A DNA stretch of 64,000 bases, taken from the NCBI RefSeq assembly GCF_003703975.1, contig NZ_QTJY01000002.1:434001-498000 (forward strand), read 5' to 3'. Of this stretch, positions 36,206 through 50,799 are shown one piece after another. The notes under the pieces were generated by a model. That model was not told the DNA's origin. It was given only the letters and a program-made list of their open reading frames with translations, and did no database searches. This DNA comes from Larkinella soli (GTDB lineage: Bacteria > Bacteroidota > Bacteroidia > Cytophagales > Spirosomataceae). How positions within the stretch are numbered: position 1 is the stretch's first letter; each line of letters begins with the position of its first letter. The position numbers and the translations under genes were made by a program.

Positions 36206-37915
36206 TTATTCTTTTTTCGTCTGCAATAACCCCATCGGCAGGGGAGAAATGTTCTCATCGGCGTTCGGGTCGCCGGAGCGGATCTTCTCGATCTCACGGA
36301 TGACGTCGACGATTCCCTTCAGCGGAATGTTCACCCAGGCCGGCCGGTAGCTGATCTCATACCCGAGCTCATACACCGCCTTTTCGAGCAGGTAGACCAG
36401 CAGCAGGAAGTTGACCTCGCTGCTGTCGCCGAACAGGGGATGCGGATTGCCGAATACGTCCAGATACGCGTCCATGTAGGTATCCCGGATCAGTTTGAAC
36501 CAGCGGTCGGACACCCGCTGGAGGTGATCCGGCTCGATGCCCTCCGTTTCGCGGCTGTTGAACAGCTTGGCGCAAACGGCGTAGTGATAGGACCGGATCA
36601 TCCCGGCCACGTCCTTCAGGGGCGAATGCTTGATCTTCCGCTCGGCAATGCTGCTTTCCGGCTCTCCCTCGAAATCGATGATGATGAAGTCCTGCCCGGT
36701 CGCCAGCACCTGCCCGAGGTGATAATCCCCGTGAATCCGGATACGGGCCGACTTCAACGGCCGCTTCCGGAAATCGTCGATGAAGGCGTCGATCATTTCC
36801 TTGGCCTCCATGAACACCCAGGCCAGCCGCTGCGCCAGCGGCTCGAGCTTCGTATAATTGTCGATGAGGAGGTTATACCGGCGTTCGAGCAGGTTCTCCA
36901 CCCTCCGGATCATGAACTCCCGGTATTCTTCCGAAAAGGGTTCGGGGGCAAACGCCGGCCCGGCCTCGGGTTTATAGAGCGCCAGGTGCATCTGCCCGCT
37001 GCGTTTTCCCAGCAGTTCGACCATATCGAAGACATCCTCCCGGACCGAAAACATCCGGTTCGGAACGGCATACAGAAAATCGTTGAGGTAATCGCCGGTC
37101 AGCGCCCAGCTGTCTTTCTGGTTCTCGACCATCAGCTGCATCATGCCCAGGGTGATCTCCGGCCGCTGCTCCGGGCCGGCCGCATCGCGGTGCCACACCA
37201 GGCTTCCCGCGTAGGCAGGAATATGGGCAAAATGGCCGGTTTCGGTCAGAAAGCTGACCATATCTACCTCCGGGTTCGTCTCCTGAAAGAGCTTCCGGTA
37301 CAGTTTCATGAAATACTTCTCCCCGCCGGGCCGCGTTTCCGTGGCCCCCGGTCCGAAGACCAGCGCCGAATTGCTGGAATCCACCGGCAGCACCCGGTTC
37401 AGAACCGGCCCTTCGCCGTCTTCTTCCGCCAGCCCCTTCCCGCGGTGAAACACCAGTTGTCCGGCTTCCTGAGGGAGCGTATGCTGCCCGGCCAGACCCT
37501 CGAACAGCGCCAGCCGAAAGGGTTCGAAGTATATGCCGTCGACCAGTTGGCCGCTCTGTCCGCCGAAGGCAGCCGGTGCAATGATTCCTTTCGGCGGAAT
37601 CTCCTCCCCCGACGGACCCGACCGGTCGGGGATGAACGCCAGCGGAAGCTGATAGTTTTCGGTTTCTCCGTCGGCATACCGGACGCCGACGATCAGCAGA
37701 TACGCCTTTCCACCCGCTTCCCCGGGCAGCGGAATTTCGTGAATGACCCGAATCGCGAAATGATCCTGCTGGCGGGCTTTACCGGCAAACCACCGGCAGC
37801 CATTGATGTAGGGCGGCAATACCGCCGTCTCCAGCAGGCGAATGACGGTTTTATCCTCTTTCAGGTCGGGCCAGTCGTGGGAGCTTGTCAGGCCAGGTAC
37901 AATCAGATCGTTCAT
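36206..37915 (-). CDS. Maltokinase (maltose-1-phosphate forming)
   Basis: 569 residues from the ATG at 37915 (MNDLIVPGLTSSHDW; a start at 37924 adds three residues). N-terminal CRWFAGKARQ motif is diagnostic of maltokinase/Pep2, and the kinase core has catalytic HGDYHLGQVLATGQ and metal-binding IIIDFEGEP. It phosphorylates maltose to alpha-maltose-1-phosphate, the GlgE substrate. Often fused to trehalose synthase (TreS); here it is a free protein. glgE ends 30 bp upstream. Confidence 0.93.
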   Translation of the reverse strand: MNDLIVPGLTSSHDWPDLKEDKTVIRLLETAVLPPYINGCRWFAGKARQQDHFAIRVIHEIPLPGEAGGKAYLLIVGVRYADGETENYQLPLAFIPDRSGPSGEEIPPKGIIAPAAFGGQSGQLVDGIYFEPFRLALFEGLAGQHTLPQEAGQLVFHRGKGLAEEDGEGPVLNRVLPVDSSNSALVFGPGATETRPGGEKYFMKLYRKLFQETNPEVDMVSFLTETGHFAHIPAYAGSLVWHRDAAGPEQRPEITLGMMQLMVENQKDSWALTGDYLNDFLYAVPNRMFSVREDVFDMVELLGKRSGQMHLALYKPEAGPAFAPEPFSEEYREFMIRRVENLLERRYNLLIDNYTKLEPLAQRLAWVFMEAKEMIDAFIDDFRKRPLKSARIRIHGDYHLGQVLATGQDFIIIDFEGEPESSIAERKIKHSPLKDVAGMIRSYHYAVCAKLFNSRETEGIEPDHLQRVSDRWFKLIRDTYMDAYLDVFGNPHPLFGDSSEVNFLLLVYLLEKAVYELGYEISYRPAWVNIPLKGIVDVIREIEKIRSGDPNADENISPLPMGLLQTKKE

Positions 37916-37945
37916 GGGTATCATTCGGAAACGGGTAAACGGATA

Positions 37946-40285: not shown

Positions 40286-41050
40286 ATGGCCAAACAATCA
40301 AAGTACGAGTTCGACGAATGGGTCAGTTCCGTGCGACCTGACCCCCGCAACACCGAGCAGATTACCCTGCTGCAGGGCTTCCTCGGTCCTTCCTCGGAGG
40401 AAGGGCACGTCCGGGTCTATTCCGACGAAACGCTCAGCAACTTTGTTGAGATTCCGGATGAAGCCATCCTCTACGCGCTGAAACTGACCGCCGAGGAGTC
40501 GCCACTGGGCGGCAGCAAGCTCTGGATCCAGTCCGGCGCCATTCTCACCTACGGCGATCCGAAGGCCGCTGCCCGGCCCAAATCGACCTTCCTCGAAGGC
40601 GACATCATGCAGCAGTACGGAGCCTTCGGACCGGCGGCCGGCCCGGGAATTCAGCCGCAGGCGGCTTCCGTGCCGCAACTGATCTGCGCCCAGCCTCTGA
40701 CCCGGCAATCGGTCTGCATCATCTGCTTCAACACGGTGAATCAGATAGCGACCTGCTACCGGACCATCTGTAACCAGGGAACCTGTCTGATTTCGGCCTG
40801 TAGCCCCCGGGTTTCCTGTTACCGGACGATCTGCCAGAACCTGACCTGCGTCAGAACCCTGTGCGGGCCGGCCTCCTGCCTGCCGATCCTCTGTGGAGTA
40901 GGCGGCTGTGGCGGCATCTCCCAGATCAATCCGGAATCGCTGGCCTGCGGGCCGATCGGCGGACCCATCGGACCGGCCGTACAGGGTGCCCAGCCCGATA
41001 CCACCCAGTTCGGCGGCTATTACGGGACGTTCAATCCGTATATGTACTGA
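40286..41050 (+). CDS. Cys-rich RiPP precursor-like protein with C-x4 repeats
   Basis: 254 residues. A leader-like domain (about 9-95) contains VRPDPRNTEQITLLQGF, RVYSDETLSNFVEIPDEAI and SPLGGSKLWIQSGAIL. A Gly/Ala/Pro spacer (about 111-128) precedes a core (134-208) with 14 Cys; from Cys157 they fall at 157, 162, 167, 172, 178, 183, 188, 193, 198, 203, 208, a five-residue pitch with one six-residue step. The first eight repeats each carry Thr or Ser one or two residues before the next Cys (CYRTI, CNQGT, CLISA, CQNLT). CYRTI recurs at 157 and 178, showing duplication of a 20-21-residue unit. The tail is Gly/Tyr-rich with Cys221. Followed by kinase, HopA1 and LanC genes, so it is read as the substrate. 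Other options: a structural Cys-rich or beta-solenoid protein. Confidence 0.75.
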   Translation: MAKQSKYEFDEWVSSVRPDPRNTEQITLLQGFLGPSSEEGHVRVYSDETLSNFVEIPDEAILYALKLTAEESPLGGSKLWIQSGAILTYGDPKAAARPKSTFLEGDIMQQYGAFGPAAGPGIQPQAASVPQLICAQPLTRQSVCIICFNTVNQIATCYRTICNQGTCLISACSPRVSCYRTICQNLTCVRTLCGPASCLPILCGVGGCGGISQINPESLACGPIGGPIGPAVQGAQPDTTQFGGYYGTFNPYMY

Positions 41051-41056
41051 GAATCC

Positions 41057-41085
41057 GTCGCCGGGAGTACCAGCCTCCCGGCGAC
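41057..41085 (+). promoter_or_regulatory. Intercistronic hairpin after the precursor gene
   Basis: Perfect 11-bp stem GTCGCCGGGAG (41057-41067) with CTCCCGGCGAC (41075-41085), 6 bp after the precursor stop and with no T tract. Such hairpins between a RiPP precursor and its enzymes commonly protect or partly terminate the message so that precursor is made in excess; that role here is inference. Confidence 0.65.
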
Positions 41086-41101
41086 AAAAACCGCTACCCC
41101 T

Positions 41102-42235
41102 ATGCTTCTAACCGGCTTCAACCTTGCTCACTATCTGATGGATAAGGGGTACCTCTCCCCCGACGAAATTCTGGACGGCACCTACACCGCCCACCCGACT
41201 TCCAGCCGGAACACCAACTTCCTGATCAACCGGGATACCGGGTCGGAAGGTCTTTTCGTCAAGCAGGTGCAGGCCTGGGACCAGGAGAAGATCCTGACGC
41301 TTCGCTCGGAGGCCACCTGCTACTGGCTGGCCAACCAGGAGGATGAGTATGCGCAACTCAAGGCCTTTCTGCCCCGGTTTATCGAATTCGACCAACCGAA
41401 CCATATCCTCATCACCGGGGCCGTTCCGGATGCGATCAGCCTGAACGACTTTTACCTCCGGGAACGGCAGTTTCCGCCGATGCTCGCCGTTCAGCAGGCC
41501 GAACTGCTCTGCTCCTTCCATAAGGATCTGGCCCGCTCCGTGCGCGACCGGCCCAGCTTTCGTCTGTTCCGACGCCAGCCGCCGACGGTTTTCCATTGGA
41601 GTGCGTCCGGATTTTCCACCTACGGTGGAACGAAAAGCCTGGCCGAACAGCAGATGATTCAGCTCATCACCCGGAACAGCGACTATACGGAACGGATGGC
41701 GGCCGTGCGTGACCAGTGGGAAACCTCCAGCCTCATCCACGGCGACATCAAACCGGCCAATTTTCTGGTGGTCGGCATTCCGGTGGTCGGCATTCCGGTG
41801 GGCGGCAGCTCTATAAAAACCGGCCGTTTCGACCTGCGGCTGATCGACTGGGAAACGGCCGACATCGGCGATCCCTGCTGGGATGTGGCCGCCGTTTTTC
41901 AGAGTTACCTGTTCTACTGGATTTATCACGAACCCGCTGCCGATCAGACCGGCCCGAATCCCTTTATCGACCCCTGCTTTTCGCTCGAAGCCATGCAGCC
42001 CTCCATGCAGATGTTCTGGAAAACGTATGCCCGGAACATGGACTGGTCGGTCGAGGAGGCCCGGGATAACCTGAAAAAGACGGTCGGCTACTGCGCTATG
42101 AAGCTGATTCATACCTGTTTCGAATCCATCCAGCAACTGCCGGGCATGCCGCTCCACAGTGCCCGGATGCTGCAGCTGAGCCTGAATATGCTGACTGCCC
42201 CCGAAGTTGCCGCCTATGAACTGTTTGGCCTCTAA
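41102..42235 (+). CDS. Aminoglycoside-phosphotransferase-like kinase of the RiPP-like operon
   Basis: 377 residues with a protein-kinase-like fold of the APH type. An ATP-binding Lys is likely Lys54 (GLFVKQVQ); catalytic loop IHGDIKPANF (212-221, Asp215, Asn220) and metal-binding LIDWE (247-251, Asp249) are intact, then GDPCWDVAAVF. In class V lanthipeptide and thioamitide clusters an APH-like kinase phosphorylates Ser/Thr of the precursor before a HopA1-family lyase acts. Right after the catalytic loop is a perfect 15-bp tandem duplication (41768-41797, residues VVGIP twice). 51 bp after the precursor gene, 15 bp before the HopA1 gene. Confidence 0.85.
   Translation: MLLTGFNLAHYLMDKGYLSPDEILDGTYTAHPTSSRNTNFLINRDTGSEGLFVKQVQAWDQEKILTLRSEATCYWLANQEDEYAQLKAFLPRFIEFDQPNHILITGAVPDAISLNDFYLRERQFPPMLAVQQAELLCSFHKDLARSVRDRPSFRLFRRQPPTVFHWSASGFSTYGGTKSLAEQQMIQLITRNSDYTERMAAVRDQWETSSLIHGDIKPANFLVVGIPVVGIPVGGSSIKTGRFDLRLIDWETADIGDPCWDVAAVFQSYLFYWIYHEPAADQTGPNPFIDPCFSLEAMQPSMQMFWKTYARNMDWSVEEARDNLKKTVGYCAMKLIHTCFESIQQLPGMPLHSARMLQLSLNMLTAPEVAAYELFGL
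41768..41797 (+). repeat. 15-bp perfect tandem repeat inside the kinase gene
   Basis: GTGGTCGGCATTCCG occurs twice in tandem, encoding VVGIP-VVGIP just after the catalytic loop and before the metal-binding Asp. In-frame, so copy-number change would lengthen or shorten a loop by five residues. Confidence 0.85.
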
Positions 42236-42250
42236 CCCCGCCCTTCCCTG

Positions 42251-43234
42251 ATGGAAACCCTGTACGACACCCAGCTCCGGATGATGATGGAAGGCATCCG
42301 GATCGACCCCGAACAGCGCCGGATCACGGTCGCCGGGGAGACTGAACCGTTCCCCTATCAGCCTGAGAACCTGAGGTCTACCCTCAGCGGTATTCTGTAC
42401 CGGTATTTTTACAATGCCGCCGGCCGGACCGACGCCCCGGCCTATTCCGCTCCCGATGCCTCGCTGGTGGAAGCCTTGAGCCGGAACAATCGAACCCCCG
42501 AAGCCTTCGACGCGCCCTGGACGGTCGAAACGGTCGATACGTCCGGAACTGTCTATGCCGCCAAAGGCAACCTGAAACGGATGGTATTTGCGGGCGAGTT
42601 CGTTTACGACACCTCCAAACGCGGTCCGGCGCAACCCGGCGACCGGCTTCGTCTGCTGATGCATTCCGAAAACCGGGAGGGGCATAGCGGCTATTATTAC
42701 GCCTTTGGGCGGACGCCCGGCGAAGAGGGAACGGCCCTCCAGACCCGCCTTTACTTCAACGTTACCCCGGAGGGCTGCCTCCGGCTGGTCGACTGGCTGA
42801 CCGCGACGCTCAACCACCGGCACATCCCGTTTCAGTTCAAATGCCTGAATCATCCGGACCTGTTCGAACGATCCGACACGGCGGTTCTGTATTTACAGAA
42901 GCCGTATGTCAACGCCGTCCTGGACCTGCTGACGGAAGCCTACGACGAGTTTCAGCCGTTTCTGCGCCGGCCGGTGCCGATGTTTACCCTCCCGCTGGCC
43001 CCCGGCATCGCCTTTGCCGAGAGCCCGCCCAACCCCGGTGAGAGTTTTGGGACGAGCCGCTGCGGCCTCATTGCCCAGGGCATCGCGGAAGCCGTAGAAG
43101 CCGGCAAAGAAGCCGGGGCGTATGAAACGGCCGTCAAAACCGTCTTCGATCAGGTCGGCCTGTCGACCGAACAGCCATACCGAAATCCGCGCTCGCAGTA
43201 TCCCTTTGTTTTCCCGATCTTTTCTGCCGAATAA
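42251..43234 (+). CDS. HopA1-family protein, candidate phospho-Ser/Thr lyase
   Basis: 327 residues. The central and C-terminal parts carry the family pattern: LYFNVTPEGCLRLVDWLT, IPFQFKCLNHP, ERSDTAVLYL, and LPLAPGIAFAESPPNPGESFGTSRCGLIAQGI. HopA1 was named for a Pseudomonas type III effector; bacterial biosynthetic members act as lyases with an APH-like kinase to make dehydroalanine and dehydrobutyrine in class V lanthipeptides and thioamitides. No secretion system is present here, and the neighbours (kinase upstream, LanC downstream) support the biosynthetic role. The LanC-like gene starts 4 bp later. Confidence 0.85.
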   Translation: METLYDTQLRMMMEGIRIDPEQRRITVAGETEPFPYQPENLRSTLSGILYRYFYNAAGRTDAPAYSAPDASLVEALSRNNRTPEAFDAPWTVETVDTSGTVYAAKGNLKRMVFAGEFVYDTSKRGPAQPGDRLRLLMHSENREGHSGYYYAFGRTPGEEGTALQTRLYFNVTPEGCLRLVDWLTATLNHRHIPFQFKCLNHPDLFERSDTAVLYLQKPYVNAVLDLLTEAYDEFQPFLRRPVPMFTLPLAPGIAFAESPPNPGESFGTSRCGLIAQGIAEAVEAGKEAGAYETAVKTVFDQVGLSTEQPYRNPRSQYPFVFPIFSAE

Positions 43235-43238
43235 ACCG

Positions 43239-44519
43239 ATGGAAACCCTCCTGACCACTTCCCCCAAACCCATCGCTCCTGCTCCCGGAGAGAATTCCTT
43301 TTTGGAAACGGCCGCCGACATCGGCCGGCTGATCTGCCGGGACGCCATCTGGCATCGCTCCCGGTGCAATTTCCTGACATCCATCAACGATCCGGCCTAC
43401 GACTATCCCCGCCCCTATTTCAAGGCTCTGGAAGCCGACTTTTATTCCGGCTCGGCGGGCGTGGCCTTCTTTCTGGCGGCACTTTACCGGGCCGCCCCCG
43501 ACCGGCAGCTTCGGAAAACCGCTCTGGGCATCCTTCAGACGACGCTGGATAATGCCCGGCGGATCGCCCCGCCCTCCGTATTAGGATTCTTCACCGGCTG
43601 GACCGGGATCGCCTGGGTGGCCATTCAGGCCGGGCGGTGGCTGGGCGAAGAAGAACCCATTGTCCGGGGGCTCCAACTGCTGCATTCGGTCGCGACGCTC
43701 GACCTGGAGCAAACCGGAATGGATGTGGTCGACGGAGCCGCCGGGGTCATTCCGGTCCTGCGGCAGGTTGAAGCCGGCTACCCGGAGCAAAATCGGCGGG
43801 ATTTCGTGATCCGGCTGGCCGACCATCTCCTTTCCACCGCCGAACGCTCCCCGGCCGGATGGTCCTGGAAAACGGTGACCGGGGGAAACCACCGCAACCT
43901 GACCGGGTTCGCCCACGGCGTGGCCGGCATCGTCAACGCGCTGCTGGAAGCCGCCGACCTGACCGGGAGCGCCGTTTACCGGGAAGCGGCTTTCGAGGGA
44001 TTGCGGTATGAGAACACCTGGTTTCTGCCTGCGGAACAAAACTGGCCCGACTTTCGGATGGGCACCCAGGCGCCGTCGAACCCGATGGCGGTGGAAGCAC
44101 CGGCCTGTTCCTGTGCCTGGTGTCATGGTGCCCCCGGCATTGCCCTTTCCCGGCTCCGGGGTTTTGAACTGACCGGCGACAAAACCCTGCTGACGGAAGC
44201 GGAAACGGCGGTCCGGACGACTGCCCGCCAGCTGACCTGGGAGCAGCAGATGAACTTTTCCCAGTGTCACGGCCTGGCCGGTAATGCCGATGTGCTGCTC
44301 GAAGCCTCGGCGATTCTTCAGGAACCGGCGTGGCGCGAAAAGGCCGAAGCAACCGGCCGAATGGGCCAGGAGCGGTTTGCCCGCACCGGCCTGTGGGCCA
44401 ACGGTCTGTACAATGACTTCCAGATTCCGGACTTTATGCTCGGCCTGTCGGGAACAGGTTATTTTTACCTCCGGCTTTTCCGGCCGGAATCCTTCCGGTC
44501 GGTATTGCTGCTGCGGTAA
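43239..44519 (+). CDS. LanC-like lanthionine cyclase
   Basis: 426 residues from the ATG at 43239 (METLLTTSPKPIAPAPGENS); an in-frame start at 43122 would overlap the HopA1 gene and is rejected. An alpha/alpha toroid with the repeated glycine motifs FYSGSAGVAFFL, GFFTGWTGIAWVA, GFAHGVAGIVNALL and GLSGTGYFYLRL. Zinc ligands are Cys295 (WCHGAPG), Cys343 and His344 (SQCHGLAG); His226 in GFAHG matches the cyclase active-site region. It should add Cys thiols to dehydrated Ser/Thr in the precursor at 40286. Last gene of the operon; no exporter or leader peptidase follows. Confidence 0.9.
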   Translation: METLLTTSPKPIAPAPGENSFLETAADIGRLICRDAIWHRSRCNFLTSINDPAYDYPRPYFKALEADFYSGSAGVAFFLAALYRAAPDRQLRKTALGILQTTLDNARRIAPPSVLGFFTGWTGIAWVAIQAGRWLGEEEPIVRGLQLLHSVATLDLEQTGMDVVDGAAGVIPVLRQVEAGYPEQNRRDFVIRLADHLLSTAERSPAGWSWKTVTGGNHRNLTGFAHGVAGIVNALLEAADLTGSAVYREAAFEGLRYENTWFLPAEQNWPDFRMGTQAPSNPMAVEAPACSCAWCHGAPGIALSRLRGFELTGDKTLLTEAETAVRTTARQLTWEQQMNFSQCHGLAGNADVLLEASAILQEPAWREKAEATGRMGQERFARTGLWANGLYNDFQIPDFMLGLSGTGYFYLRLFRPESFRSVLLLR

Positions 44520-48348: not shown

Positions 48349-49896
48349 TTAGAGTCCCGAGCCGTCCGCCTTGCCGCGGGCCACCGCATAGTCGCCGATG
48401 GCTACCCCGCATTTCAGGCCCGCTTCGCAGTCGAAGCGAAAATGGATCAGGCCGTACATCCGGGACGTTGAAGCTTCCTGCGCCATCTTATCGAAGGAAC
48501 CGGCTTTGTCCGGGAATACATAACCCAGTACCCGGGCCGCAGCCCCTGAAAACGTCGAGTGACCGGACGTGTAGGACGGGAAGTTGGGCAGCCCCACCGA
48601 GGTTTTCAGGCCAAATTGCTGCGGACGGGGGTAATAGTAATAGAATTTGGTATCCCAGCAGCAGATGCCTGCGTCCATCTGACTGGTCCCGAGCAGGGCC
48701 AGCGTCCGGGCGGTGCGTACCTCGCTGAATTTGGCGTCGTGGGCGGCATTGACGGCCGTCCGGAACCAGTGTCCGGGGGGCGTGTAGCTTCCGGCGCCGT
48801 CGGACCAGTAGTTGGCAATGCGGGCCTGCTCCCGGGTCTGGTTCTTCTGAATGTCCTTCAGTTCATCCAGCGCCTTTTTGAAGTCGGGGCTATCGAGCGC
48901 CGGCGGAGGTCCCGGGCGCAGTTTGATCATGGTTTCACGATCGAAGTTCCAGGTCTGCACGGCACCGTAGTTCGGCAGCATGGGCGGCCGCTTCGGGCTT
49001 TCCTGGCTGATCCAGACTTCCGTCAGCCCGAGCAGTTTGGCCTTTTCGATCATTCCGGCGGTCAGGGCCTGGTTGTTGGCCGTGCTCATTCCGTCGGCCC
49101 GGGCCCTGCCCATCACTTTGGCGGCTACGGCCGTCCCGAGGTCGGCACCGGCGGTCAGGTCGCTTTCCACGTTCATGCCCGCCCAGAGCCGGCTTTCACG
49201 ATGCTCTTTCATTTTGGCTTCCAGAAAAGGCACCTCGCCGGGGAACATGGCCTTCAGCACGGTGAACGAAGCGGCTGCCACCACGGCGTCTTCCGAGGGA
49301 TACGACGGCAGACCCGATACCGGCAAAACCGCCTGAATACCCGAGTCGACTTTGGAAGGTGCTTCCCGACGGTATTTGAACTTGTAATTCCAGGCCGCCA
49401 CCAGGGCGTCATACTGCGCCACGCTCAGGTAGGCCAGCGCCCGGGCGGTATAGGGCGGGTTGGCAAACGGAAACTTCGGATCGGCCAGCGGGTTGTTGGC
49501 ATCCGGCACCGGATACTTTCCTTCGGCATTGGAAGCCGGGGGAATGTTGTACCGGGCGGCCAGCTCACGGGCGATCTCGTTCCAGCGGTATACGGCGCCG
49601 GCGCCCCAGTACGAAATGGCGTCGCGCTGGACACCCGTCAGACCGGCCATCTTCTGTTTCAATGCGCTCAGTTCGGCCTTGTATTCGGCGGAGGTGACGG
49701 CTTTGGGTTCCGGCAACGCCACCTCGGAAGAACCGGTCAGGACGTAGGGTTTCCAGGCGCCGGCTTTTTCATCCAGATTACCCGGAGAATAGGCCTGACG
49801 TTCAGGCTCATCGATGGATTTGTCACAGGAAACGACCAGCGCTCCGGCGCCCGCCAGAAGGGCAGGAAGAAGTATGAAGGAGATATATTTTTTCAC
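48349..49896 (-). CDS. Vanadium-haloperoxidase/PAP2-like lipoprotein
   Basis: 515 residues from a GTG at 49896 (KKYISFILLPALLAGAGALV), with a lipobox ending at ...VVSC. All three PAP2-superfamily motifs are present near the C-terminus: K-x6-RP in KFYYYYPRP, PSYTSGH, and SR-x5-H-x3-D in SRMYGLIHFRFD. The length and long helical N-terminal half fit the vanadium-dependent haloperoxidase-like branch rather than a small lipid phosphatase. It could bind vanadate and act as halide peroxidase, or phosphate and act as phosphatase; motif alone cannot decide. Upstream are two barrel genes on the same strand. Confidence 0.85.
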   Translation of the reverse strand: MKKYISFILLPALLAGAGALVVSCDKSIDEPERQAYSPGNLDEKAGAWKPYVLTGSSEVALPEPKAVTSAEYKAELSALKQKMAGLTGVQRDAISYWGAGAVYRWNEIARELAARYNIPPASNAEGKYPVPDANNPLADPKFPFANPPYTARALAYLSVAQYDALVAAWNYKFKYRREAPSKVDSGIQAVLPVSGLPSYPSEDAVVAAASFTVLKAMFPGEVPFLEAKMKEHRESRLWAGMNVESDLTAGADLGTAVAAKVMGRARADGMSTANNQALTAGMIEKAKLLGLTEVWISQESPKRPPMLPNYGAVQTWNFDRETMIKLRPGPPPALDSPDFKKALDELKDIQKNQTREQARIANYWSDGAGSYTPPGHWFRTAVNAAHDAKFSEVRTARTLALLGTSQMDAGICCWDTKFYYYYPRPQQFGLKTSVGLPNFPSYTSGHSTFSGAAARVLGYVFPDKAGSFDKMAQEASTSRMYGLIHFRFDCEAGLKCGVAIGDYAVARGKADGSGL

Positions 49897-49908
49897 GGTG
49901 AGTCCCAA

Positions 49909-50799
49909 TTACAGTTTAAACAGATACAGTACGCCAACCTGGTAGCTGGTGCTTTGTCCTACATTCCGTCCGCCGACGACGTATCCGACCCGGGCGCTGA
50001 GCCCGATGTTGCGGGGTTGCACCTTCCCGTACCAGCCGACCGAGGTGGCCTGCATATTATTGGTCGGGAAGGGCATGTCGTTCCGGCGGATATGATCGCC
50101 ACTCGTGCAGGCGGTCCGTTCGACCCAGACTTCGGTCTGCCACATCTTCCGCAGAATTCCGAGACGACCGCCCAGATCGAAGGCGTTGGGCATCCGGACC
50201 TCATCCGTATTGTACAACCGGTCGTTGGCCTGGTAGGCGTCGCGGTCGAGTTTGATGTTGCTCCGCCAGATGTAGCTGCCGTGGCCCGTCACGTACAGGC
50301 CCGTGGCCGGGTGTTTGTAGTTGGCCACCAGCCGCCCCATGGCGGTGCGGCACTGCAGGCCGATCGACATCGGCAGAAAATCCGGCACGTAGTTGCCGAC
50401 CGGCAGGGAAGCCCCGGCAACGGCATTCAGCGAAAATCCTTTCCAGGCTACCACTTTGTATTTCAGCCACCCGGACAGGTCCTGGAACCCTTTCTGGCCC
50501 ATCAGGTTACCGGCCGAGGTTTGAGTCCAGACGTAGGGCAGAGCCAGAATCACGTTCAGGCGGTTGGTGATCCCGATCGCGGGCATCAGCATGACGTTCT
50601 GGGTCGTGTGCGTGCCGATATTCAGATTTTCGCGCTTCAGGGAGTTTTCCCAGTACTGGTCCCAGGTGCTGCGGCCATACATACCCGCGACGCAGACGGA
50701 GCCTTTGCCCATATAAATGGCGTCGTGGGGCATCTGGGCGCGTGCTGCCAGCGGCAGCAACAGGGCAATAGCTACAAGGTATCGAATGGATTGATTCAT
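49909..50799 (-). CDS. Outer-membrane transporter-like barrel protein
   Basis: 296 residues: signal peptide MNQSIRYLVAIALLLPLAARAQ, then amphipathic strands (NRLNVILALPYVWTQT, FSLNAVAGASLPVGNYV, LGGRLGILRKMWQTEVWVERT, IGLSARVGYVVGG) and a C-terminus ...YQVGVLYLFKL. LPVGNYVPDFLPMSIGLQCR is the sort of motif seen in FadL/phenol-degradation-type meta-pathway barrels. The next gene downstream, 12 bp away, is the haloperoxidase-like lipoprotein, so the two may be one unit. Confidence 0.7.
   Translation of the reverse strand: MNQSIRYLVAIALLLPLAARAQMPHDAIYMGKGSVCVAGMYGRSTWDQYWENSLKRENLNIGTHTTQNVMLMPAIGITNRLNVILALPYVWTQTSAGNLMGQKGFQDLSGWLKYKVVAWKGFSLNAVAGASLPVGNYVPDFLPMSIGLQCRTAMGRLVANYKHPATGLYVTGHGSYIWRSNIKLDRDAYQANDRLYNTDEVRMPNAFDLGGRLGILRKMWQTEVWVERTACTSGDHIRRNDMPFPTNNMQATSVGWYGKVQPRNIGLSARVGYVVGGRNVGQSTSYQVGVLYLFKL

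What the first reader, a model, noticed from the sequence alone, without database searches (positions are those of the whole stretch)
40286..44519. Class V-like lanthipeptide operon in Bacteroidota: Cys-rich precursor, APH-like kinase, HopA1 lyase, LanC
Four plus-strand genes with gaps of 51, 15 and 4 bp encode a leader-plus-Cys-rich-core protein, an APH-like kinase with intact HGDIKPAN and IDWE motifs, a HopA1-family protein and a LanC-like cyclase with intact Cys295/Cys343/His344 zinc ligands. In actinobacterial class V lanthipeptides and thioamitides, an APH-like kinase plus HopA1 lyase carry out Ser/Thr dehydration. A LanC alongside would complete lanthionine formation. The very large substrate (254 residues) and Bacteroidota host are not what I know from characterised class V systems, so this may be a new family.
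Basis: partly seen in the sequence, partly recalled or inferred. Interest (0 to 1): 0.92.

Follow-up and report, generated by a model that had tools for sequence, protein, structure and literature searches.

The report
Giant-precursor lanthipeptide operon in Bacteroidota
Four neighbouring genes appear to make an unusually large cysteine-rich protein and tie its cysteines into sulfur bridges with known antibiotic-type chemistry, and relatives carry precursors with many repeated modules that length-limited surveys would pass over.

Summary
In detail: at 40286-44519 four plus-strand genes with gaps of 51, 15 and 4 bp encode a Cys-rich 254-aa protein (A), an APH-type kinase (K), a HopA1-family protein (X) and a LanC (C). 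K and X match the two subunits of the solved class V dehydratase LxmK-LxmY; catalytic residues of all three enzymes are intact and conserved. This enzyme set is already described as class Vb (LanK+LanY+LanC), so the enzymology is known. New here is the substrate: a ~112-residue Cys-free N-terminal domain plus a core with matched Cys and Ser/Thr (15:15). Relatives in Spirosoma, Hymenobacter, other Bacteroidia and one Deinococcus plasmid have precursors of 189-578 aa with up to 46 Cys, some built of repeated modules with Gln-rich linkers. A protease gene precedes the precursor in 12 of 15 assessable Bacteroidota loci (not the window). All 17 examined Bacteroidota loci with a LanC have a Cys-rich precursor (zinc motif visible in 16; one LanC is cut by a contig end); 12 of 12 examined kinase-HopA1 loci without a zinc-motif LanC lack one. 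Most likely a class Vb-like system making large or multi-core thioether peptides. No product has been shown.

The parts
40286..41050 (+). A: Cys-rich precursor protein, 254 aa
   Evidence: 44-53% identity to homologues in 7 genomes of genus g33, Spirosoma; one copy in its genome
40286..40621 (+). N-terminal Cys-free leader domain (residues 1-112), ends in conserved RPKSTFLEGDIMQQY
   Evidence: alignments A6, A10; profile matches in Deinococcus (25.7 bits) and G1179 (26.0 bits); modest-confidence all-beta model
40685..40948 (+). Cys-rich core (residues 134-221): 15 Cys, 15 Ser+Thr, 1 Asp/Glu
   Evidence: non-random Cys to Ser/Thr spacing in 11 related cores
40988..41047 (+). conserved C-terminal tail (residues 235-254), ...QPDTTQFGGYYGTFNPYMY
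41102..42235 (+). K: APH-type kinase (LanK/LxmK-like)
   Evidence: PF01636; PDB 9dk1 chain A E 2.5e-5, not the best hit; NCBIfam LxmK 49.8 bits, below its 315-bit cut-off; K54, E70, D215, N220, D249 invariant in 12 of 12
42251..43234 (+). X: HopA1-family phospho-Ser/Thr lyase (LanY-like)
   Evidence: PF17914 E 1.2e-36; PDB 9dk1 chain B E 1.3e-10, best hit; R166, K197, R207, Y214 invariant in 12 of 12
43239..44519 (+). C: LanC cyclase with Cys295, Cys343, His344 and His226
   Evidence: PF05147 E 1.1e-56; LicM2 6st5 E 9.9e-26; residues invariant in 7 of 7

Best explanation
A class Vb-like lanthipeptide operon with an unusually large precursor. Inferred steps: the N-terminal domain of A docks on the K-X complex; K phosphorylates Ser/Thr in the Cys-rich core; X eliminates phosphate to give Dha/Dhb; zinc-bound C adds Cys thiols to these, giving (methyl)lanthionines, at most about 15 in the window's core. 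A protease (subtilase, pro-kumamolisin type or metzincin-like in relatives; encoded elsewhere or absent in the window) then removes leader and tail, and in relatives with repeated modules cuts at the linkers to release many peptides. Shown here: gene order, homology, intact active sites, co-occurrence, purifying selection in one species pair. Not shown: any modification, cleavage, export or activity.
For: K and X match the two chains of the class V dehydratase LxmKY, PDB 9dk1 (identity of the entry from a passage of PMC12141560). CaoY residues shown by mutagenesis (R187, K219, R229) and conserved Y236 (PMC9486802) align by spacing with R166, K197, R207, Y214 (31/10/7 against 32/10/7), invariant in 12 of 12. 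LanC zinc ligands invariant in 7 of 7. A-K-X-C adjacent in all 9 genomes of 222 that have the leader (C cut in G046). All 17 examined Bacteroidota K-X-LanC loci have a Cys-rich ORF before K, zinc motif visible in 16; 12 of 12 examined K-X loci without a zinc motif have none. Cys and Ser+Thr are about equal in the nine single-core members (15:15, 12:12, 12:13, 12:12, 11:12, 11:11, 12:17, 12:15, 12:11). Leaders have no Cys (9 of 9). dN/dS of the core is 0.10 (one pair). Protease gene directly upstream in 12 of 15 assessable loci.
Against: No experiment. K scores far below the LxmK equivalog cut-off (49.8 against 315 bits), so orthology is not claimed. The window has no adjacent protease (339 bp to the GlgE gene) and its genome gave only a 32% match to one relative's subtilase. 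No transporter was recognised among the genes scanned beside the operon, and no signal-peptide predictor was run, so maturation and export are open. Ser+Thr exceed Cys clearly in the multi-module precursors (26:53, 44:79, 31:59, 46:82, 16:51). G429, G377, G938 precursors lack a detectable leader domain, so recognition must differ. AlphaFold of full-length A is uninformative (pLDDT 38.8).
Confidence: 0.8

Rival explanations
1. The modified protein is not cut into small peptides but stays as one large thioether-crosslinked structural or surface protein.
For: Size, repeats and Cys density recall structural proteins (a keratin profile is the only Pfam match, insignificant: best E 0.56); window, L137 and L141 show no adjacent protease; a regular 10-residue repeat in Hymenobacter BT188, seen by eye.
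Against: A protease gene lies directly upstream in 12 of 15 assessable loci; Gln-rich linkers (QQAQAQ, LQANAQ) punctuate the modules of G938 and G1179; flanking motifs recur between the three cores of G046.
Confidence: 0.3
2. K and X form a signalling pair (phosphorylation plus irreversible phosphate elimination) and the Cys-rich protein is incidental.
For: Other K-X loci in the same family sit beside genes that look like TPR sensor kinases and NarL-type regulators (by eye) with small, Cys-poor proteins.
Against: Those loci lack a zinc-motif LanC and a Cys-rich gene (12 of 12), while all 17 loci with a LanC have a Cys-rich gene.
Confidence: 0.1
3. A is an ordinary disulfide-rich protein and K-X-C modify another substrate.
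For: High Cys content alone would suit disulfides.
Against: A is the neighbour of K-X-C in 9 of 9 genomes of the family that have it; Ser/Thr count tracks Cys count in single-core members; LanC enzymes activate Cys thiols; the precursor families differ in sequence but all are Cys-rich.
Confidence: 0.07

Closest known systems
Class Vb lanthipeptides (SmoA with a LanC cyclase; Pei et al. 2022, paper not held, known to me from passages of PMC12328550, PMC10676316 and PMC12291118)
   Same: APH kinase + HopA1 lyase + LanC
   Different: PMC12328550 says class V is known only from actinobacteria; here Bacteroidota and Deinococcota, precursors of 189-578 aa, a leader domain of about 100 residues and, in relatives, repeated cores
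Class Va: cacaoidin CaoK/CaoY, lexapeptide LxmK/LxmY (PMC9486802; PDB 9dk1)
   Same: Dehydratase pair, conserved lyase residues
   Different: Va uses LanX/LanD and AviMeCys and no LanC (passage of PMC12291118); short leader
Deinococcus sp. QL22 plasmid NZ_CP097150.1 locus
   Same: Related leader domain, kinase, HopA1, LanC; S8 peptidase beside it
   Different: HopA1 and LanC fused; 189-aa precursor with 5 Cys, not in PLSDB's gene table (which is incomplete)
Class II LanM cyclase domain (LicM2, 6st5)
   Same: C is nearest to LanM-type LanC domains (TIGR03897 263.7 bits, cut-off 304; 6st5 best PDB hit)
   Different: No LanM dehydratase domain in C

Membership tests
Class V lanthipeptide (LanK + LanY) | APH-family kinase with intact catalytic residues | tested here: met
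Class V lanthipeptide (LanK + LanY) | HopA1-family lyase with Arg/Lys/Arg/Tyr set | tested here: met
Class V lanthipeptide (LanK + LanY) | NCBIfam LxmK equivalog score above cut-off | tested here: not met
   49.8 of 315 bits, so not filed as an LxmK orthologue. Kinases of the Aliiroseovarius and Rhizobium K-X-LanC loci also fall below it (77.9 and 95.6)
Class Vb | Zinc LanC in the cluster | tested here: met
Class Vb | (Me)Lan crosslinks in the product | not testable with these tools
   needs mass spectrometry
Class V lanthipeptide | Precursor under about 110 aa with short leader, as mined so far | tested here: not met
   254 aa; PMC9486802 collected only ORFs shorter than 110 residues.
Class Va | LanD decarboxylase and LanX, no LanC | tested here: not met
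   LanC present; no decarboxylase or second kinase-like gene beside the operon among the 16 genes scanned between 34094 and 56911, apart from a maltokinase-like gene at 36206-37924
Classes I-IV | LanB, LanM, LanKC or LanL enzyme | tested here: not met
   only C matches, to the cyclase parts of LanM, LanL and LanKC profiles, each below cut-off; the rest of the genome was not searched for such enzymes

The most novel reading that the evidence does not exclude
A family of giant lanthionine proteins in Bacteroidota and Deinococcota: a folded N-terminal recognition domain (lost or replaced in some) followed by one to about a dozen crosslinked modules, either released by a swappable dedicated protease as a library of peptides from one gene or kept as a thioether-knotted polymer.
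Probability: 0.5. Interest if true: 0.82.

Novelty: new variant of a known kind. Interest (0 to 1): 0.68.

Why it matters
Lanthipeptide mining has capped precursor length at 100, 110 or 120 residues (passages of PMC11251773, PMC9486802 and PMC7268733), so precursors of 189-578 residues next to a LanC would be missed by construction in those surveys. If the chemistry holds, one gene can encode ten or more ring systems, class V-type enzymes act well outside actinobacteria, and a domain of about 100 residues replaces the usual short leader. The prediction is directly testable by co-expression and mass spectrometry.

Tried and rejected
Rejected: homology of the A leader to the small proteins of the Cys-free K-X loci, which I thought I saw by eye. 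Profile comparison gave nothing (hhalign probabilities 0.24 and 0.12 percent; HMM scores at shuffle level). Fold of the leader: the model is all-beta with pLDDT about 80 over residues 31-80 (64.6 overall), but no PDB match reached E 0.001 (best E 0.53). Full-length A: no usable model. No HopA1 relative found in viral contigs. No match of A in plasmids. PF05453 (Toxin_6) and PF08852 hits on the G938 precursor had no stretch passing on its own and are put down to Cys-rich or repetitive composition. Promoter and terminator scans gave nothing usable (promoter-like sites 4 against a mean of 1.3 in shuffles, terminator-like 4 against 4.8).

Limits of the counts: one search found HopA1 matches in 44 of 222 genomes; I fetched wider regions for 20 of them and had the window, so 21 of 44 were examined; the other 23 (best E 8.7e-18 or weaker) and second matches in G046, G172, G122 and G171 were not. 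All new genomes (2; 4; 2) were examined; one of these four, G961, is the BT188 genome already seen as L052. Of 14 plasmid records I opened 6. Genome samples of order, phylum and class were drawn evenly from larger groups, and the genome search scored only part of the first-look candidates in several genomes. The cores in the spacing test are related to each other, so its shuffle frequencies overstate significance. The start codons of the G1179 and G377 precursors are my choice. The automatic Cys scan ranks other-frame ORFs above the precursor in L127 and L137; those two precursors were taken.

Full report
What is there. Four plus-strand genes at 40286-44519, gaps 51, 15 and 4 bp. Upstream on the other strand, 339 bp from A, is a GlgE gene, with a maltokinase-like and a branching-enzyme-like gene behind it; downstream on the other strand are genes of unknown function. 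A is 254 aa with no Pfam or NCBIfam match at E 1. K, X and C match APH, HopA1 and LANC_like.

Enzymes. The profile of X matches PDB 9dk1 chain B (E 1.3e-10) and the P. syringae HopA1 structure 4rsx (E 0.00054); the profile of K matches 9dk1 chain A (E 2.5e-5), third after a choline kinase (1.9e-8) and capreomycin phosphotransferase (8.6e-6). PMC12141560 (passage) identifies 9DK1 as the lexapeptide dehydratase LxmKY. PMC9486802 (parts 1-3 of 5 read) shows that CaoK phosphorylates and CaoY eliminates, that K219A abolishes and R187A nearly abolishes elimination and that R229Q impairs it. By spacing and the HMM alignment these correspond to K197, R166 and R207, with Y214 for Y236; all four are invariant in 12 of 12 sequences and in the Aliiroseovarius, Deinococcus, Rhizobium, Pseudonocardia and Tolypothrix proteins. 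C keeps Cys295, Cys343, His344 and His226 in 7 of 7; its best PDB hit is LicM2.

The precursor family. In the family of the window, 9 of 222 genomes have the leader profile: the window genome, seven genomes of genus g33 and G046; all nine have A, K, X and C adjacent in that order, with C cut by the contig end in G046. Three g33 contigs have the lengths of named Spirosoma records, so I take g33 as Spirosoma. A is single-copy in the window's genome. Samples of the order (4 of 390) and phylum (1 of 395, the window itself) show it is rare. The N-terminal residues carry no Cys in the nine precursors tested and end in a conserved FLEGD motif; the tail QPDTTQxGGYYGTFNPYMY is conserved; the core between varies but keeps Cys. 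From first to last Cys the window has 15 Cys, 15 Ser+Thr and one acidic residue; eight other single-core members (one lacking its N-terminus, two nearly identical to each other) have 11-12 Cys, 11-17 Ser+Thr and no acidic residue. The match does not hold in the multi-module precursors, where Ser+Thr exceed Cys (26:53, 44:79, 31:59, 46:82, 16:51). Ser/Thr sit non-randomly relative to Cys (enriched at -6, -5, +3, +4; depleted at +1, -3, -4, related sequences). In the close pair G184/G185 dN/dS is 0.08 (leader), 0.10 (core), 0.06, 0.11 and 0.12 (K, X, C).

Larger relatives. G046 has 535 aa with three cores flanked by recurring spacers. G429, G377 and G938, of genus g47 (Hymenobacter, by G961), have 511, 426 and 550 aa with 44, 31 and 46 Cys and no detected leader domain. 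G933, same genus, has about 267 aa with seven WTxGCTFSE-type repeats, resembling by eye the three-repeat 80-aa protein at the Aliiroseovarius locus. In that genus 6 of 120 genomes have the HopA1 match. G1179, in another family of the class, has 578 aa and 39 Cys: a leader that matches the A profile (26.0 bits against 4.2 for the best of 500 shuffles) followed by modules such as IPTVPVVSCVTCTGIPIVCSQAP with Gln-rich linkers. G1166 has a partial one at a contig start; these two are the only new ones among 232 genomes of the class sample. An ORF of 189 aa on the Deinococcus sp. QL22 plasmid, absent from PLSDB's incomplete gene table, lies before its kinase and matches the leader profile (25.7 bits; best of 220 shuffles 7.0). 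So the domain crosses phyla and joins the single-core and multi-module forms.

Co-occurrence. In Bacteroidota I examined 17 loci with K, X and a LanC (window, L031-L038, L052, L126, L127, L134, L136, L137, L140, L141): 17 of 17 have a Cys-rich ORF before K (cut by a contig end in L037 and L140, broken over frames in L136). Both halves of the zinc motif are visible in 16; in L038 the LanC is cut before them. Of the 12 K-X loci L039-L050 none has the motif anywhere in the fetched 9-18 kb: eight have no LanC match and four a partial LanC-like tail without it. None has a Cys-rich ORF that looks like a precursor; the highest counts there, 8 in L039 and 9 in L045, are short ORFs overlapping other genes. 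This linked presence and absence is the strongest comparative argument for thioether chemistry.

Proteases. Directly before A, same strand: subtilase in L034, L036, L038, L052, L136 and G205, a different subtilase in G200 (L124), a pro-kumamolisin-type protein in L126, L127 and L134, and a protein with a HELGHxxxxxH motif in G185 and, 98% identical, G184 (metzincin-like is my reading; no Pfam match). That is 12 of 15. None in the window, L137 (an AraC-type regulator) and L141 (metal-transport genes); not assessable in L032 and L140 (contig ends). The Deinococcus locus has an S8 peptidase after the LanC. Different protease types in one position suggest that leader or linker cleavage is the shared need. 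The window may use a protease encoded elsewhere; its genome gave only a 32% match to the L036 subtilase.

Location. The operon lies next to GlgE in the window genome and in six of the seven g33 genomes (G184, G185, G200, G205, G210, G215; the G209 contig ends too early), while 8 of 8 siblings of the window's genus have GlgE without A, K, X or C in the fetched flank: old location with loss, or transfer by flanking recombination; not resolved.

What is known. Class Vb (LanK, LanY, LanC) is described in PMC12291118, PMC12328550 and PMC10676316 (passages only); the original paper is not held. PMC12328550 says class V has been found only in actinobacteria, though PMC9486802 already lists cyanobacterial candidates. 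Searches for lanthipeptide with HopA1, LanC, Bacteroidetes, Bacteroidota, Spirosoma, Hymenobacter or multicore showed no listed paper on such precursors; I judged this from listings and the passages named, within an open-licence library, and did not open most listed papers. Hence: known enzyme class, new precursor variant.

Noticed in passing
L039-L050 (genomes G172, G122, G171, G042, G163, G139, G110, G143, G109, G039, G102, G127): APH kinase plus HopA1 protein, without zinc LanC and Cys-rich gene, beside genes that look like TPR sensor kinases, NarL-type regulators and a small Cys-poor protein (by eye): possibly a regulatory system built on phosphorylation and phosphate elimination.
   Followed up: partly
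L044, L045, L046, L049: HopA1 proteins with a weak, partial LanC-like tail that lacks the zinc motif (E 1.4e-7 to 1.6e-4).
   Followed up: partly
L084 4596-8291; L080 4092-7836; L081 4102-7731: K-X-LanC sets on plasmids of Aliiroseovarius, Rhizobium and Pseudonocardia (HopA1 and LanC fused in the last two) with 80-101 aa Cys-bearing neighbours.
   Followed up: partly
L136 (G946): A, K and C are each split over two frames while X is whole: decaying copy or sequencing indels. Not mended.
   Followed up: no
L052 13217-14340: In Hymenobacter sp. BT188 the operon is followed by a ParA-type ATPase gene, which may mean a plasmid.
   Followed up: partly
window 48349-50799; L031 8991-13940: PAP2-superfamily genes (haloperoxidase-like, recalled) paired with a 296-303 aa protein, conserved and partly duplicated beside the operon in Spirosoma.
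   Followed up: no
L034 10773-11225, L036 11791-12276, L136 11852-12211: Small protein before the subtilase that resembles a protease pro-domain (by eye); possible inhibitor.
   Followed up: no
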